Assembly (NCBI GenBank): GCA_033763895.1
Contig: JANRJQ010000007.1
Coordinates: 124,001 to 188,000 of the forward strand
Length of the DNA: 64,000 bases
Direction: 5' to 3'
Source of the DNA: Chloroherpetonaceae bacterium
Lineage (GTDB): Bacteria; Bacteroidota; Chlorobiia; Chlorobiales; Thermochlorobacteraceae
Shown: piece by piece, positions 8,495 to 18,219 of the stretch
Layout of the letters: the number at the start of each line of letters is the position of its first letter
Numbering within the stretch: position 1 is the stretch's first letter
The notes under the pieces: model-generated
The model's database searches: none
What the model was told of the DNA's origin: nothing
Seen by the model: only the letters and a program-made list of their open reading frames with translations
Program-made: the position numbers and the translations under genes

Positions 8495-9669
8495 TCTTCT
8501 GCTATAGGTTCAACAGTTTGAGGTAATTCATCGTGAGTTAAAAGTGGAAGCAACACCGTAAATTGTTCATTATCTTTTGAGACTCTGATTCCCTTCTTCG
8601 ATTGGCCTTTTTGGGACAAGAGTTCATATCGTTCTTCAATACTTTTCAACCCTATTCCCACATGATTTTCATCAATTTTGCCATTAATTGGTTTAATCTG
8701 ACTTAAGCTTTTTAACTGTAATGTATTGGAAATAATCGCTACGCTCGGTGTGGCGGAGATGAAAATGGTCAATGGCTTTTCAATTGAAACAATATTATGC
8801 TTAACCGCATTTTCAATGAGTAATTGAAGACTCATGACCGGAAGAAATTTGTTAAGACTTTGCTCATCAATATCCCAAATTGTTTTGAGATTCGTTCCAA
8901 AACGGGTTTCCAATAAATACAAATAGCTTTTTGCGAAAGCCAGCTCCTCTTCATAAGTCACCAACGACTTATGATGGCTTTGTAAAACATACCTATACAC
9001 TTTTGCCATTTGAGAGACGAATTCAGTTGCCTTGGAAGGGTTTTCTTCAATCAGAGATGAAAGCACATTCAATGTATTAAATAGGAAATGGGGATCGATC
9101 TGATTTTTGATTGCTCGTAGTTCAGAAGCCAGTAACGAGCGTTTCATTTTTTCTGATTCTAATACCGTATATCGCCATCGATTAAAAAAAACCAGTCCTG
9201 TATAAGAGCCGGTAAGGGCTATCGTAGCGAGCACAGAGAAAGCCAACATGAATAGCATATAAGCAGGAGAAATCCACTCGTTACAAACGATGAGGTAGTA
9301 AAATCCATTGACCAAAATTCCAATTGCAATGCTAAGCCCTGAATGCGCTGTCAACTGAACTAAAATTCGGGTTAATGGCCTTTCTTCCCAGCTAAAAAAT
9401 CGATGCAGAAAATCCGAAAGGAGCAGGTAGGTTTCAGAAAGTAAAATAACCTGAAGGACTGTTGGAATTAAGTCGTAAGTGTAGGCCCAAGCGCCATACT
9501 CGATGTAATATCGACTAATACCCGGATTATCATGAAACCGTGCGACGTATTCCGGATCAACAAAGTAATTCGGAATCGACAGGGCGACAGCAATAACAGG
9601 CAATCCAACCAACCGAAACCAAAGCGTAAACCCATCCACTGGATTCTTGCCGACGCTGTTAGTGCTCAT
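8491..9669 (-). CDS. LytS/YehU-type sensor histidine kinase
   Basis: A 392-residue membrane kinase. Several hydrophobic segments in the first ~190 residues (such as LLSETYLLLSDFL and FMLAFSVLATIALTGSYTGLVFF) form the sensor region. The His_kinase domain (PF06580) follows, with the phospho-acceptor His in IKNQIDPHFLFNTLNVLSSL, then an HATPase region with LLIENAVKHNI and GIGLKSIEERY. Its start overlaps the end of the RND gene by 11 bases and its end overlaps the response regulator by 4, so it is coupled to both. The signal is unknown; envelope stress or a pump substrate is a reasonable inference. Confidence 0.93.
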   Translation of the reverse strand: MSTNSVGKNPVDGFTLWFRLVGLPVIAVALSIPNYFVDPEYVARFHDNPGISRYYIEYGAWAYTYDLIPTVLQVILLSETYLLLSDFLHRFFSWEERPLTRILVQLTAHSGLSIAIGILVNGFYYLIVCNEWISPAYMLFMLAFSVLATIALTGSYTGLVFFNRWRYTVLESEKMKRSLLASELRAIKNQIDPHFLFNTLNVLSSLIEENPSKATEFVSQMAKVYRYVLQSHHKSLVTYEEELAFAKSYLYLLETRFGTNLKTIWDIDEQSLNKFLPVMSLQLLIENAVKHNIVSIEKPLTIFISATPSVAIISNTLQLKSLSQIKPINGKIDENHVGIGLKSIEERYELLSQKGQSKKGIRVSKDNEQFTVLLPLLTHDELPQTVEPIAEE

Positions 9670-12600
9670 CGTTTATTTCTTCAAAGTTAAATCCTAAAGC
9701 TTTTTCTAATTCGATTGAAGCTAAAATAAAATCAACCAAAGATGCAAGGTAGCGCGAAGACGATTCTTTGAGTGAAAATTCGGCATCGGTAACATCAAGT
9801 TGTTTCGCCAATCCTTTTGAATATCTGCTTTTCACCAATTGAAAATTTCTTTCAGCCAATACTTTTGTTGAAGCAATTGAGGAAACCCTGCTTTCGGCTT
9901 CTCGCCTTGCTAAGACGGCATTTTCAACTTGAACATGAATTTCCTTTTCAATCTGCCGCAATTCTTCCTCCTTTGTTTTTCGATCAATCTCTGCTGCCTC
10001 AATTTGGCCGCCAAGCGAATTCGCAGTAAAAATGGGAAGTGAGAATTGGAGACCCACAAATGAATTCACCGGTGCATCACTTCCTTGAATTGGAAGACCA
10101 GAAAAACGATTTGACTGTGCTTGTATCTGTACTGCACCAATGAGTGAGAGCTTTGGCATTAATGCCCCGATTTCTCGATCCACTGTCGCTTCGGCAACTT
10201 CTTTCTGAATTGCAATAGACTTTTTATCACTCCTTTGATTGAGAGCTTGAAGAATCAAGGTATCAAGGGTTTGCAAAGATGGTTGAAATTTATTTCGTTG
10301 CATTTCATATAGTATTTCTAATGAATCTTCAATCTTCAATTGAACTGAACCGGGAAGGTTTAGTAGCAATTTCAGATAAGAATGCAACCGAATTTCTTGA
10401 TGTGCAATTCGCTCTGACTCAGGCCGAAGCGATTGAATGGAGACATAAGATCGTAAGGTATCCGTTTCAGAAATAAGACCCGCATTATAAAGCCTTTGAT
10501 TTTCTCGATGAATATCTTCTGCTCTTTGAATTGACGATTCAATGAGACGCTTTTCAGAATGGAGAAACAAAATAGAGACATAAGTTTTTCTTGCTTCCGT
10601 AACCACAGCAATTTCTTGCCCTTCTCGCTCCGTTTTTGCCAACGATTCGAGGAGTGAAGAAGCTTTAATCCCAATCCAAGTTTCATAATTCAATAAGGGT
10701 AACTCAAGCGACATATTTCCCACATACGAATTCGGCAAGCTTGCTTCGATGGGCGAAACACCACCAATTGGCCCAAATTCTCCCGTTGTGGGATTGATTC
10801 CCAAATTGGGTAAAAAGAAAACTTGAGGACGAATATTATAAGTATAGTTTAAGGATGCGTTTAGCGATGGCAGTGCGTTACCAATGGCTGTTCTTACTTG
10901 CGCCTTTGTTTTTAGTTCTTGCAAACGCGCCATTTTAATCGCAACATTTTCTTTGCGTGCTAAAGATTTAACCGTTTCAAAATTCAAGGGTTTACTTACG
11001 AATTCTTGTGCTTGTAACTCTTTAATTGACATCGTTAAGGCTGTCAGGATGAACATCAAGACCACTGATTTCATGATTTGATTTGAGGCATTATTTCGAT
11101 GAGAGAGATGTTTTTCATTCATAATTTCATTTGAATTTGAAAATTGAATTTCATTCTTTGATAACTCTTCTTGATTGACTGCTTTGGTAAATTCAGGATC
11201 AATCGGATTCATTTCAATGAACTTTAATACTCCTGATTTTGATATCCACGACTTAAGCTTTGCGACAAGATTTTCAATGTCGATGAAGATTGTTGGCACA
11301 AGAAGCAGGGTTAGAAACATCGAACTCGAAAGCCCGCCGATAAGTGCCCAACCCAAGCCATTTTTCCACTCTGAGCCACCCCCAGAAGAAAGAGCAACCG
11401 GTAACATTCCAATAACCATCGCAACGGTGGTCATCAAGATTGGTCTTAATCGGGTTTCGCCGGCTTCTAAAAGTGAATCGTATAACGTCATTCCACCTTT
11501 ACGATTTTGAATGGTCCGATCGACAAGCAAAATGGCATTTTTTCCGACGAGACCCGTGAGCATAATTAAGCCAAGAATTGAAAAAATGTCGAGTACGCTG
11601 CCAGTAACTGCCAAGGCAATCAAAGCACCAGTGATTGCCACCGGAATTGAAAAAAGCACAATCAAAGGATAAATGAATGAGTCGTAAAGGGCAACCATCA
11701 CCAAATAAATAAAGAGAATCGCTGCAAGAAATGCCAAACCGAGTTTGCCGAATGAATCGCCTTGCATTTCAAGATCCCCTTCCAAGCTGATTCGAGTTCC
11801 TTGTGTTAGAGGTATGTTTCTTAAGGCATTATTGAAATCCTCTCCGATTTCTCCGGTAGAGCGGCCAAATGGTTTTGCGAAAATGGTGATACTTGGCATT
11901 CGATTTTTTCTTTCGAGCTTTGATGGCGAATCAATTGTGCGAATTGAAGCCACGCTGAGAATCGGAACTTTAACCCCACTTTGATTTTGAATAACGAGCG
12001 AAGAAAGGAAATCCGTTGATTTTTTTTCTTCATCACGATAACTAATTCGAATCGGCATTTCGGTTTCATTCAAGGTGAATTTGGATTCCTCATCCCCGGC
12101 AAATGCGACTCTCAATGCGTAAGACACCTCAGCCAATGAGAGTCCGTTTTCCGTGAGTTTTTCATCGTCTATTCGAAACTCAATTTCAGACTTGCTTCCT
12201 GCAAATGAAAGGCGGACATCGCTAATTCCTGAAATAGATTGAAGCGACCCTGCCACAAGAGACACTGATTTCAGAAGTGAATCTCTCGATGCGTTACTTA
12301 GATTGATCATTATCGGGTAACCATCTCCTGTCCCAAATAGACCGATCGGTGAAATTCTCGCCTTAACGCCCGGGTAATTGGTAATCATTGTTTTTAGTGC
12401 TTCGGATACTTGGTCTGAATTCCTTTTTCTCTCCCCTTTTGGGACAAGTTGAACGAACATTTCAATAACATTTGAAGCGGATTCTCCCAGAAATGCTTCG
12501 TTCGAAGAACCCACTGTCGAGAAAATTTTCTTTACCTCAGGGAATTCTTTGAGCTTTTGTTCAATTGATTTTGCGAAGTCATTTGTCTCTTCGAGCTTGG

Positions 12601-14326
12601 TACCAACCGGCAATTCCATTACAACCGAAAGCTCTCCGCGGTCCATCGGTGTTACAAATTCTCCTCCTATAAACCCAAGCGGAATAAGAGAGATTGCAAA
12701 AACAAGTGAGGCTACACTTCCAACGAGAATTGTTTTACGATGAGAGAGCGCCCATTTCAACACCGATAGATAGATTTTAGAAAGGGACTCAATCATTTTC
12801 TCAAAACGAATGATGATTCTTCCAAATACTGAAGATGAATTGAGGTGTGTCAGTTTACTAAATCGACTGGCCAACATTGGAGTAAGCGTAAAGCAAACAA
12901 ACAAACTCATCAAAGTTGAAAACACCACCACAAGTGCAAACTCTCGAATGATGTTCCCGGCAATTCCCGGCACAAAAGAAAGCGGAAGGAATACCACGAC
13001 ATCGACCAGTGTGATTGAAATTGCAGAAAAACCAATTTCGTTTCTGCCTTCAAGCGCTGCACGAAAGGGTGTCTTTTCCATTTCAAGATGACGGAAAATA
13101 TTTTCCAATACCACGATGGAATCGTCAACCAAAATGCCTATGACCAATGACATCGCGAGGAGGGTCATCAGGTTTAACGAAAACCCAAAGAGAGACATAA
13201 AAATAAATGTTGAAATCAATGAGGCCGGAATCGAAATCATCACGATTACGGCGCTTCTGAGGCTATGCAAAAAAAGAAGCATAACCGCAGCAACAAGGAT
13301 TATGGCAACCAAGAGATCATGTGTCACGGCATCAGCAGCGGCAAGTGTAAATTCTGATCCATCGGAGGCAATATCAAATTGCAATTCTTCTGCCGAATAC
13401 GTATCGCGAAGCTTTTTAATCTCTTCTCGAACGAGCCGAGAGATTTCAACGGAATTTGCACCGCTCTGCTTTTGAATTAAGAGGGCAATCGACTCGTTGC
13501 TATTTAATCGGCTAAAGGTTTCTTGATCTTTTAAACCTAATGTCACTTCTGCGACATCCGAAATTTTAACCTTTGAACCGTTAGGAAGATTAACAATTGT
13601 TTTATTCTTGATTTCATCGAGAGATAAAAACTTTCCGTTTACTCTTAAAGAAATCTCTTGATCTTTGGCTTTTACTTTTCCTGCCGGCAGATTATAATTT
13701 GTTTGAGATATTGCTTCTGAAATGCTCAACGCGGTCAATCCAAAATCTTCCAGCTTTTTAGCATCTAGCTTCACTTGAACTTCCCTTTCACTCCCGCCAA
13801 CCAAAGTTACATTTCCAACTCCTTCTAATTGTGAAAGTGCCGGCCGAATTCGTTCTTTCAGCAACTTATAAAATTCACTCATCGGTAAATTACTTGTAGC
13901 GCTAAGCCGCATCACAGGTAAATCGGAAAGTGAAAACTTAGAAAGCGTTGGTGTCTTCGCTTTTTCCGGTAAGGTGCTTAAAATTTCATTTACTTTTCTT
14001 TGCGCTGCGGCAAGAGCTAAGTCTTCATTGACGGTCAATTCAAACTCTACATAAGTCACTGAGTAACCTTCGGCTGAGGTTGAGGTGATTCTTTTCACTC
14101 GATCGAGTGTTGATAGCGCATCTTCAATTTTTTTAGTCACCGAAGATTCAACATCGCTTGGAGAGGCACCCGGATAAACTGTTGTTACCGTAACAGAGGG
14201 CGTATCAATCTTTGGGAGCAATTCATACTTCATTAATGAGTATGAAAAAAGCCCAATTGAACCTAATAGAATGAAGACAACGATGATTAGGCTTGGTCTT
14301 CGAATCGATAATTCTGTAATTGTCAT
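9659..14326 (-). CDS. RND efflux pump (HAE1/AcrB type) fused to a TolC-like outer-membrane factor
   Basis: A 1555-residue fusion. Residues 1 to about 1035 are a complete HAE1-family RND transporter: N-terminal TM helix, porter domains, LLAMSLVIGILVDDSIVVLENI (TM4 proton-relay Asp pair), and a second half ending in LLLVPTIFIDI. A linker with no hydrophobic segment follows. At residues 1085-1107 there is a sequence that looks exactly like a signal peptide (MKSVVLMFILTALTM...LQAQ). Residues ~1108-1555 are a TolC/OEP protein (NALPSLNASLNYTYN, two helical repeats, ending IELEKALGF). CzcA-TolC fusions are known in Bacteroidota; a HAE1-TolC fusion with a retained signal-like segment is less usual. 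The gene lies between its adaptor (7-base gap) and the sensor kinase (11-base overlap). Confidence 0.92.
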   Translation of the reverse strand: MTITELSIRRPSLIIVVFILLGSIGLFSYSLMKYELLPKIDTPSVTVTTVYPGASPSDVESSVTKKIEDALSTLDRVKRITSTSAEGYSVTYVEFELTVNEDLALAAAQRKVNEILSTLPEKAKTPTLSKFSLSDLPVMRLSATSNLPMSEFYKLLKERIRPALSQLEGVGNVTLVGGSEREVQVKLDAKKLEDFGLTALSISEAISQTNYNLPAGKVKAKDQEISLRVNGKFLSLDEIKNKTIVNLPNGSKVKISDVAEVTLGLKDQETFSRLNSNESIALLIQKQSGANSVEISRLVREEIKKLRDTYSAEELQFDIASDGSEFTLAAADAVTHDLLVAIILVAAVMLLFLHSLRSAVIVMISIPASLISTFIFMSLFGFSLNLMTLLAMSLVIGILVDDSIVVLENIFRHLEMEKTPFRAALEGRNEIGFSAISITLVDVVVFLPLSFVPGIAGNIIREFALVVVFSTLMSLFVCFTLTPMLASRFSKLTHLNSSSVFGRIIIRFEKMIESLSKIYLSVLKWALSHRKTILVGSVASLVFAISLIPLGFIGGEFVTPMDRGELSVVMELPVGTKLEETNDFAKSIEQKLKEFPEVKKIFSTVGSSNEAFLGESASNVIEMFVQLVPKGERKRNSDQVSEALKTMITNYPGVKARISPIGLFGTGDGYPIMINLSNASRDSLLKSVSLVAGSLQSISGISDVRLSFAGSKSEIEFRIDDEKLTENGLSLAEVSYALRVAFAGDEESKFTLNETEMPIRISYRDEEKKSTDFLSSLVIQNQSGVKVPILSVASIRTIDSPSKLERKNRMPSITIFAKPFGRSTGEIGEDFNNALRNIPLTQGTRISLEGDLEMQGDSFGKLGLAFLAAILFIYLVMVALYDSFIYPLIVLFSIPVAITGALIALAVTGSVLDIFSILGLIMLTGLVGKNAILLVDRTIQNRKGGMTLYDSLLEAGETRLRPILMTTVAMVIGMLPVALSSGGGSEWKNGLGWALIGGLSSSMFLTLLLVPTIFIDIENLVAKLKSWISKSGVLKFIEMNPIDPEFTKAVNQEELSKNEIQFSNSNEIMNEKHLSHRNNASNQIMKSVVLMFILTALTMSIKELQAQEFVSKPLNFETVKSLARKENVAIKMARLQELKTKAQVRTAIGNALPSLNASLNYTYNIRPQVFFLPNLGINPTTGEFGPIGGVSPIEASLPNSYVGNMSLELPLLNYETWIGIKASSLLESLAKTEREGQEIAVVTEARKTYVSILFLHSEKRLIESSIQRAEDIHRENQRLYNAGLISETDTLRSYVSIQSLRPESERIAHQEIRLHSYLKLLLNLPGSVQLKIEDSLEILYEMQRNKFQPSLQTLDTLILQALNQRSDKKSIAIQKEVAEATVDREIGALMPKLSLIGAVQIQAQSNRFSGLPIQGSDAPVNSFVGLQFSLPIFTANSLGGQIEAAEIDRKTKEEELRQIEKEIHVQVENAVLARREAESRVSSIASTKVLAERNFQLVKSRYSKGLAKQLDVTDAEFSLKESSSRYLASLVDFILASIELEKALGFNFEEINDEH

Positions 14327-14333
14327 TGCAAGT

Positions 14334-15422
14334 TTAGTTTTGATAAATTTTCAAAGTAATCTGTGAAAGGTCTCTCCCTGTCAGGCGCTCTTTTTCAATA
14401 AGATTTTGTCCTTTAACGACCACTTGTTCATTTTCATTTAAACCGTTATGAATAATGACATCTGTCTCACGGGTTTCACTGATTTCTACCATTGTTTTCA
14501 CCGTCTTACCGTTTTGATAGAGATAAACGAAATTTGCTTCTCCTTCTTTGAGAACTGCAATTCGGGGAATGGTGAGCGCCTCATTTTGAATTGAAGGCAT
14601 TGTGATGGTCGCAGAGACACCGGCCAACAAGTGAATGGATTGAGTGTTTTGAAGAACGATTTCGACCGGAAATTTTCGGCTGTTATCAGCAAGGACTCCA
14701 ATCTGTTTGACCACACCTTTGAAGGTTTCATTTTTGTTATTAATCTTAACTTGAACCGCTAACCCTTTGTGAATATTCTCAATGTCGGATTCATGCACAT
14801 AGACAATGAGTTTGAGTTCGCTCAGGTCAGAAATTTTATAGACCGGCGTACCGATTTGGAGGTTCATGCCTAATTCGACCGATTTTTCAACCACATATCC
14901 TGTAAATGGGCTCGTGAGTCTTGTATTTTCAAACTGCTTTCGGAGTTCTTTGAATTCGCTTTCCCTTAAAGAGAGCTCGAGTTCGGCGTTTTCGAGATCG
15001 GTTTCTGAAACATTATTCTCTCTCTTCAGATCTTGCAAACGCGTCACATCTTTCTTTGCTTTCAGTAGCCTTGCTTCGGCTGCATTTAGTTGTGCCTCTT
15101 GAACTTCGCTTTCAAGTTTGACAAGCACTTGACCTTTAGCAACTTTATCGCCCAATGAAACCGCAGCAAAAAGCACTTTTCCGGAGCCTTCACTAATCAG
15201 AGTGACATTACGCTTTGGTTCAAGAACTGAGCGAAAGAGAAGTTTCTTTTGTACCGAGCGCTTCTTCGCTTCCGCAATTTCTACCGGAATTATTGAAGAA
15301 GTGTTTTCTTGAAATTGGTTTTCTTTTTGAGCTTCACCGGGGTTTATAAATCCATTGATGAAAAAGAGCCCAATAAATATGACTGCGATCATTAGGGCAA
15401 TTGAGACTATTTTACGCTTCAT
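14334..15422 (-). CDS. RND periplasmic adaptor (membrane fusion protein)
   Basis: A 362-residue HlyD/AcrA-type adaptor linking the inner-membrane pump to the outer-membrane channel. It has an N-terminal signal or anchor helix (IVSIALMIAVIFIGLFFI), split lipoyl halves (LISEGSGKVLFAAVSLGDKVAKGQVLVKL and LTSPFTGYVVEKSVELGMNLQIG), a coiled coil between them rich in Glu, Lys and Leu, and a C-terminal beta-barrel/membrane-proximal region ending in GLNENEQVVVKGQNLI. It is the first gene of the operon adaptor / RND-TolC / LytS / LytTR. The substrate is unknown. The intergenic region upstream holds candidate regulator sites. Confidence 0.93.
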   Translation of the reverse strand: MKRKIVSIALMIAVIFIGLFFINGFINPGEAQKENQFQENTSSIIPVEIAEAKKRSVQKKLLFRSVLEPKRNVTLISEGSGKVLFAAVSLGDKVAKGQVLVKLESEVQEAQLNAAEARLLKAKKDVTRLQDLKRENNVSETDLENAELELSLRESEFKELRKQFENTRLTSPFTGYVVEKSVELGMNLQIGTPVYKISDLSELKLIVYVHESDIENIHKGLAVQVKINNKNETFKGVVKQIGVLADNSRKFPVEIVLQNTQSIHLLAGVSATITMPSIQNEALTIPRIAVLKEGEANFVYLYQNGKTVKTMVEISETRETDVIIHNGLNENEQVVVKGQNLIEKERLTGRDLSQITLKIYQN

Positions 15423-16631: not shown

Positions 16632-16773
16632 GAATTTCACCGAGGCTTATCCGAATTTTTTTGAATCTCATAACTCGATTTTCTCGAACCCCCGCTTCAA
16701 CATTCATTTCCCCTTTTAACTTCAATCGTTCTTGATTACATTTGATCAGCTAAAACCATAAAATGAACGAACG

Positions 16774-18219
16774 ATGAAGAGTAACCACATCAATCGAAAT
16801 CTTGATTCCCACAATCATTTACCTGAAGACCTGCAATCATTTTTGAAGAATCTTTCTCCCGAAGATGAAGCAAAACTTCTTAAAATTGTTAATGCAGGTA
16901 AAGACCTTCTTGGCAAATTGCAAACCAACGAAAATGAAATTCACTCGCTTCTAAATGCTCTCGAAGGTGGATATACACTACCACAATTCGGCGGCGATGT
17001 TATTCGAGATGGTTCTGCTGTATTGCCAACCGGTCGCAATATTCATGCAATGGATCCTTGGCGAATTCCATCTGATCTTGCAATGAAACGCGGCGCTCAC
17101 ATCGCTGAAAAATTAATTGAAGCCCACCAAGAAGAAAATGGGATTTATCCAGAAACAATCGCACAAGTGCTATGGGGAATGGATACCATTAAAACAAAAG
17201 GCGAGCCCGTGGCCATCATTCTTGGTCTCTTTGGTGCTGAACCGATCAAGGATGGACAGGGAAAAATTTCTTCGTATGGTCTTATCCCGATTGAAAAATT
17301 GGGGCGTCCTAGAATTGATGTGCTCATGACAGCATCCGGCATATTTCGCGATACTTTTGGGATGCAAATGGATTTTCTTGACCGATTGGTACAACTTGCC
17401 GCTTCTGCAGATGAACCTCACGAGATGAATTTTATTCGGAAACATGTCGATGAAATTATGGCGGAAAAAAGAATCACTTTTGAACAAGCCACCGCTCGAA
17501 TCTTCACGCAGCGCGAAGGCGACTACGGCACCTATGTCGATGATCAAATCGAATCGTCATCGTGGCAAGAAGAAAATGAACTCGGCGATATGTTCATCAA
17601 GCGGAATTCCTATTCATACGGAGGCAAGCGAAGCGGAACAGAAAACACTTTGGTTTTGGAATTGATGATGAAAAAAGTAGATCGAATTTCTCAAGAAATC
17701 GATTCAGTTGAATATGGGCTAACCGATCATCAACATTACTTTGCACAATCCGGCGCGATGAGCCAAGCCGTTGAAAAACGCAGCGGAAAAAAAGTGTCCG
17801 TCAGCTATATCGAATCCTACACTTCCGAAACAAACATTCAGAATCTTGATTCAATGATTCGTATGGAAGCACGCACCAAAATTTTGAATCCGAAATGGTA
17901 TGATACAATGCTCAAAAACGGGCGAAGCGGTGCCGCAGAAATCTCCTCTCGCTTCACTTATCTCTTGGGCTGGTCTGCCACAACCAAGTCTGTTGACAAA
18001 TGGGTATTTGATGAATCAGCCAAAACATTTCTTTTTGATGAGGAAATGCGAAATAAACTGGAAAAACTCAACCCGGAAGCATTAAAAAATATGACCGGCA
18101 GAATGCTCGAAGCCGCCGGCCGTGGCCTATGGAACGCTTCGGAGGATGATTTAGAGAAGCTCCGCGAACTGTATGCTGATTTGGAAGATAAACTTGAAGG
18201 AATAAAAGTGACCTCCTGA
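16774..18219 (+). CDS. C-terminal half of a BchH-type magnesium chelatase H subunit, stand-alone
   Basis: BchH is the ~1250-1300-residue porphyrin-binding subunit that inserts Mg2+ into protoporphyrin IX. This protein has only 481 residues and aligns by eye to the C-terminal part. From about residue 75 come GGDVIRDGSAVLPTGRNIHAMDP, YPETIAQVLWGMDTIKTKGEP, ELGRPRIDVL-type text, EMNFIRKH, YGLTDHQHYF, ARTKILNPKWYDTML and LLGWSATTKSVDKWV. Residues 1-60 are a helical segment resembling the region before GGD in full-length enzymes. It has a normal ATG 140 bases after the ABC gene, and no remnant of the N-terminal half is upstream. It could be a natural split subunit acting with an N-terminal half elsewhere, a regulator or an evolving relic; the frame is fully intact. 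Confidence 0.85.
   Translation: MKSNHINRNLDSHNHLPEDLQSFLKNLSPEDEAKLLKIVNAGKDLLGKLQTNENEIHSLLNALEGGYTLPQFGGDVIRDGSAVLPTGRNIHAMDPWRIPSDLAMKRGAHIAEKLIEAHQEENGIYPETIAQVLWGMDTIKTKGEPVAIILGLFGAEPIKDGQGKISSYGLIPIEKLGRPRIDVLMTASGIFRDTFGMQMDFLDRLVQLAASADEPHEMNFIRKHVDEIMAEKRITFEQATARIFTQREGDYGTYVDDQIESSSWQEENELGDMFIKRNSYSYGGKRSGTENTLVLELMMKKVDRISQEIDSVEYGLTDHQHYFAQSGAMSQAVEKRSGKKVSVSYIESYTSETNIQNLDSMIRMEARTKILNPKWYDTMLKNGRSGAAEISSRFTYLLGWSATTKSVDKWVFDESAKTFLFDEEMRNKLEKLNPEALKNMTGRMLEAAGRGLWNASEDDLEKLRELYADLEDKLEGIKVTS

What the first reader, a model, noticed from the sequence alone, without database searches (positions are those of the whole stretch)
16774..18219. Half-length BchH: an intact C-terminal magnesium-chelatase H module
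The gene has a normal start and an undamaged 481-codon frame yet contains only the C-terminal ~40 percent of BchH. Green sulfur bacteria carry several full-length BchH paralogues (BchH, BchS, BchT). A split or regulatory subunit would be unusual and could influence partitioning between bacteriochlorophyll species.
Basis: partly seen in the sequence, partly recalled or inferred. Interest (0 to 1): 0.6.

Follow-up and report, generated by a model that had tools for sequence, protein, structure and literature searches.

The report
Magnesium chelatase H subunit split in two
In a family of hot-spring green bacteria, the large enzyme part that puts magnesium into the chlorophyll precursor is encoded as two separate proteins from distant genes, and in three genomes this two-piece version is the only one, so it almost certainly works as an assembled enzyme.

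Summary
Window 16774-18219 (+) is an intact 481-codon gene covering only the C-terminal ~40% of a magnesium-chelatase H subunit. It is not a lone or regulatory fragment. The same genome encodes the missing N-terminal part as an intact 813-codon gene on another 978-kb contig, plus one full-length H paralogue. The same two halves, broken at the same place and never adjacent, occur in four related genomes. Three of these, including MAGs GBChlB and 'Ca. Thermochlorobacter aerophilum', have no full-length H at all, yet carry BchD, a BchI-like protein, FMO and CsmA. Trees of each half and of the pair give one clade, sister to the clade holding the full-length S/T-type subunits. The catalytic residues reported for cyanobacterial ChlH are intact but divided: H621, E625 and E660 in the N-half, H1174 in the C-half. 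Selection is strongly purifying. No intein and no Rfam group II intron explains the break.

Best explanation: a trans-encoded, two-polypeptide BchH whose halves associate non-covalently into one H subunit. The split and its conservation are shown; association and activity are inferred. It is a new variant of a known enzyme. I found no published description, but the key 2012 Thermochlorobacter paper was not readable here.

The parts
16774..18219 (+). C-terminal half of a split BchH-type magnesium chelatase H subunit (481 aa); equivalent of ChlH H1174 is H321 in DHQHYF
16834..16926 (+). start of the shared C-half core (residues ~21-51), just after the break; upstream residues 1-20 are variable between genera
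16632..16773 (+). 142-bp intergenic region upstream; no N-terminal half, no Rfam match; neighbouring genes are not conserved between genera, so the gene appears to be expressed on its own

Best explanation
Window 16774-18219 encodes the C-terminal polypeptide of a naturally split, trans-encoded H subunit of magnesium chelatase. The partner is the 813-aa N-terminal polypeptide encoded on contig C10 (L003:1498-3939, minus). I propose that the two proteins fold as separate modules and bind each other without a covalent link. The break falls in a variable linker (TIGR02025 positions ~773-823). Together they would rebuild the cage of BchH, with the porphyrin site between them: the N-half supplies the equivalents of H621, E625, Y651, Y653 and E660, and the C-half that of H1174. 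This H would then be served by the BchI-BchD ATPase and insert Mg2+ into protoporphyrin IX. Shown: the split, the common breakpoint, co-occurrence of both halves, common ancestry, residue conservation, purifying selection, and absence of any other H in three phototroph genomes. Inferred: physical association, catalytic activity, and that the product feeds all (bacterio)chlorophylls where it is the only H.
For: Own genome: three PF02514 matches, namely full-length (C4), C-half (C7, the window) and N-half (C10), with open frames of 1270, 485 and 818 aa. Same two halves in G001, G002, G004 and G006; G001, G004 and G006 have no full-length copy at completeness 100, 96 and 99%. G001 carries both on one contig, 24 kb apart, so binning error is excluded there. 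Among 98 class genomes only these five have the ~470-515-aa stand-alone C-terminal frame. N-halves end and C-halves begin at the same alignment region. N-only, C-only and joined trees put the halves in one 99-100%-supported clade, sister to the S/T-type full-length clade and clear of CobN. Key residues conserved in all five pairs (residue roles from PMC13297055). dN 0.12/dS 2.4 (N-half) and dN 0.10/dS 2.8 (C-half) between members of genus g3. All these genomes have BchD, a BchI-like protein, FMO and CsmA. C-terminal constructs of other H/CobN proteins have been solved alone (6ys9, 5ewu, 9fpc). No Rfam match near either half in two genomes.
Against: No direct evidence of binding, activity or expression. 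All split genomes appear to be metagenome assemblies. Two of the five N-halves (G004, G006) carry one frame break each, at different places; in G006 it lies in an A-run, and G004 also has rpoB in two frames, so sequence error is the likelier cause, but this was not checked on reads. In G000 and G002 a full-length paralogue could do the work. A structure prediction of the C-half on 3 sequences was poor (pLDDT 45) and adds nothing.
Confidence: 0.87

Rival explanations
1. The C-half is a decaying or truncated remnant, with the full-length paralogue doing all the chelation.
For: A full-length H exists in G000 and G002; two N-halves in draft assemblies have a frame break.
Against: Three genomes have no full-length copy. 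Both halves are intact in G000, G001 and G002, are 68-87% (C) and 59-86% (N) identical across three genera, keep all tested catalytic residues, and show dN/dS near 0.04-0.05 where dS is measurable.
Confidence: 0.04
2. The C-half is a stand-alone regulatory or porphyrin-carrier protein that does not need the N-half.
For: The C-terminal module can fold alone in other H proteins (6ys9, 5ewu).
Against: An N-half accompanies it in all five genomes. Where there is no full-length H, catalysis needs residues from both halves.
Confidence: 0.04
3. The two genes are joined at RNA or protein level (trans-spliced intron or split intein) into one full-length BchH.
For: Trans-encoded halves of one protein exist elsewhere by such routes (general knowledge).
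Against: The halves add up to about full length (813+481 versus 1267 aa), with no extra intein sequence and each with its own start and stop. N-half tails and C-half heads are variable. No Rfam group II intron match near either half in G000 and G001.
Confidence: 0.02
4. Assembly or binning artefact: a contiguous gene cut up by misassembly or strain mixing.
For: All split genomes appear to be metagenome assemblies.
Against: The same breakpoint recurs in five assemblies with different neighbours. Both halves lie inside long contigs (524 and 978 kb in G000) and on one contig in G001.
Confidence: 0.02

Closest known systems
BchS and BchT, and the single full-length H of Thermochlorobacter-family genus g4
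   Same: Nearest relatives in the tree; C-half 50-57% and N-half 39-47% identical; same catalytic residues (BchS-type has R at H1174)
   Different: Those are single ~1270-aa polypeptides; the split clade is a separate lineage outside them
Canonical BchH of Chlorobiaceae/Chloroherpeton and ChlH of cyanobacteria (4zhj)
   Same: Same fold family (PF02514 plus DUF3479), same catalytic residues, same partners BchI/BchD
   Different: Single polypeptide; canonical BchH is only ~30% (N) and ~40% (C) identical; no member of this lineage was found in the Thermochlorobacter-family genomes
CobN cobaltochelatase and HmuS dechelatase
   Same: Same superfamily, detected at lower score
   Different: NCBIfam BchH scores 655 and 719 bits for the halves versus at most 378 and 264 for CobN models; the H1174 position is D or C in the CobN-like outgroups

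Membership tests
Magnesium chelatase H subunit (BchH/ChlH) | CobN/Mg-chelatase domain PF02514, with DUF3479 at the N terminus | tested here: met
   C-half PF02514 646-1089; N-half PF02514 2-653 plus PF11965
Magnesium chelatase H subunit (BchH/ChlH) | One polypeptide of ~1200-1330 aa; TIGR02025 score over 829 bits | tested here: not met
   Each half is below the cut-off (654.7 and 718.9 bits); only together do they cover the model, 3-772 and 824-1271
Magnesium chelatase H subunit (BchH/ChlH) | Catalytic and channel residues H621, E625, Y651, Y653, E660, H1174 | tested here: met
   All present across the pair in all five genomes
Magnesium chelatase H subunit (BchH/ChlH) | Phylogenetic place among Mg-chelatase H rather than CobN | tested here: met
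Magnesium chelatase H subunit (BchH/ChlH) | BchI and BchD encoded in the same genome | tested here: met
   BchD over cut-off in 11 of 11 genomes; BchI-like ~370-410-aa frames at lower score in most
Magnesium chelatase H subunit (BchH/ChlH) | ATP-dependent Mg insertion into protoporphyrin IX | not testable with these tools
   needs biochemistry
Split-intein or trans-spliced gene pair | Intein halves or group II intron pieces at the break | tested here: not met
   No extra sequence at the termini; no Rfam match up to E 1 near either half

The most novel reading that the evidence does not exclude
The H subunit is a genuine obligate heterodimer whose active site is formed across two separately encoded proteins, and separate expression of the two halves is itself a control point for chlorophyll synthesis in these aerobic green phototrophs.
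Probability: 0.3. Interest if true: 0.68.

Novelty: new variant of a known kind. Interest (0 to 1): 0.55.

Why it matters
Magnesium chelatase makes the first committed step of all chlorophyll synthesis, and its ~140-kDa H subunit is hard to study in pieces. Evolution has cut it at one place and kept both pieces in trans, in some genomes as the only H subunit. That marks a natural module boundary and gives two smaller proteins for mixing, labelling and structural work on how the porphyrin cavity opens and closes. The lineages with only the split H, only the full-length H, or both are natural deletion strains for asking what several H paralogues are for. Automated annotation can miss such halves because each scores below the family cut-off.

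Tried and rejected
Rfam scan for intron pieces: nothing. Gene order around either half is not conserved between genera, so it gives no functional hint. BchD alone did not resolve the base of the family; a first rpoB/FMO tree had two wrong reading frames and was redone. The genome-contig scan found only the two public Thermochlorobacter-type MAGs. Plasmid search gave only ordinary H/CobN proteins for reference. Literature searches found no mention of a split bchH; Liu et al. 2012, which defined 'Ca. Thermochlorobacter aerophilum', is not held.

Full report
What is there. Window 16774-18219 (+) is an open frame of 481 codons with ATG start and TGA stop. It matches the C-terminal end of the H subunit and nothing else: PF02514 646-1089 of 1090, TIGR02025 824-1271 of 1271 and Synechocystis ChlH chain residues 923-1350. 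The N-terminal ~60% is not upstream: the preceding gene is an ABC-transporter ATPase on the same strand.

The missing half. A search of the whole genome with PF02514 found three genes: a full-length 1267-aa H (contig C4), the window gene (contig C7, 524 kb) and an N-terminal half of 813 aa (contig C10, 978 kb). The N-half covers TIGR02025 3-772 and carries the N-terminal DUF3479 domain. The two halves together miss only about 50 model positions, in a stretch that varies in length among full-length H proteins.

Relatives. The same pair occurs in G001, G002, G004 and G006. G001, G004 and G006 have no full-length H; genus g4 (G003, G005, G007) has only a full-length H; G000 and G002 have both. 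G008 (genus g4) has one 565-aa C-terminal frame that runs to a contig end and groups by score with the g4 full-length genes, so it reads as a cut full-length copy. In 98 genomes of the class, only the five split genomes have the stand-alone C-terminal frame of ~470-515 aa; a few other short frames (for example G061, G073) were not followed up and may be contig ends. G010, of a sister family, has an N-part of the same lineage that runs off a contig end, so its state is unknown. In G001 the halves lie on one contig 24 kb apart, in the same direction but with the C-half gene first; elsewhere they are on different contigs. Neighbours differ between genera.

Phototrophy. All eleven genomes examined have BchD and FMO, and all but the incomplete G008 have CsmA. 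BchI-like frames of ~370-410 aa are seen beside or apart from BchD in most. So organisms whose only H is split keep the partner and the light-harvesting genes. GBChlB was described as an aerobic photosynthetic Chlorobi member with FMO and bacteriochlorophyll genes (PMC4161750).

Trees. A tree of joined halves with full-length H, CobN-like, cyanobacterial and proteobacterial sequences gives one split clade with full support, sister to the clade holding the S/T-type subunits and the family's own full-length H, and distant from canonical BchH. N-only and C-only trees agree on this placing, so both halves descend from one gene. The labels BchH/S/T for G034 rest on my memory of the C. tepidum gene order and genome size, not on a name in the data. 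The species tree (rpoB, FMO, BchD) has G010 as sister to the family and leaves G000, g4 and (g2, g3) unresolved. The simplest history is one split by the base of the family, with loss of the pair in g4 and of the full-length gene in G001 and in the G004/G006 line; other orders are possible.

How it likely works. A recent review names H621, E660 and H1174 as essential catalytic residues of ChlH, with E625, Y651 and Y653 along a proposed proton path (PMC13297055). In every split pair the first group (H621, E625, Y651, Y653, E660) lies in the N-half and H1174 in the C-half, all conserved. Neither half alone has the whole site, so the pair must come together for the known chemistry. C-terminal constructs of about this size from other H/CobN proteins have been solved alone, so such a module can fold by itself. 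The halves carry no intein sequence, and no intron family was found near them; hence a non-covalent heterodimer is the inference.

Selection. Where synonymous change is measurable, dN/dS is about 0.04-0.05 for both halves. Two N-halves have a single frame break in draft assemblies; the G004 assembly also breaks rpoB into two frames, which points to sequence error.

Limits. Binding, activity and expression were not tested. Absence of full-length copies rests on metagenome assemblies of 96-100% estimated completeness; one of them (G006) has 13% estimated contamination. Novelty rests on literature searches of open papers only.

Noticed in passing
window 9659-14326 (-): One 1555-aa frame holds a full AcrB-type RND pump (residues 4-1015) followed by an outer-membrane efflux protein domain (best stretch 1354-1545): an apparent pump-OMF fusion next to its periplasmic adaptor gene (14334-15422). 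Could be real or a lost stop.
   Followed up: partly
BchS-type H subunits, e.g. L056:1265-5152, L058:6886-10695, L061:6037-9897, L064:7564-11388: All five BchS-type sequences checked have Arg where ChlH has the catalytic His1174 (DIDRYF instead of DIDHYF), while the BchH-, BchT-, split and family full-length types keep His.
   Followed up: partly
L042 (G010:C335): A genome of a sister family carries an N-part of the split-type H lineage that runs off the contig end; no C-part was found in the assembly, so whether it is split is open.
   Followed up: partly
window 16774-18219 and L003:1498-3939: Both halves fall below the NCBIfam BchH cut-off (829 bits), so automated annotation may not name them BchH; genomes with only the split form may look as if they lack bchH.
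   Followed up: yes
L060:1674-5426 and L065:1245-5081 (G009, G012): A further PF02514 paralogue in the Chloroherpeton-type family has Glu at the H621 position and Cys at the H1174 position; it branches with CobN, so it may be a different metal chelatase or dechelatase.
   Followed up: no
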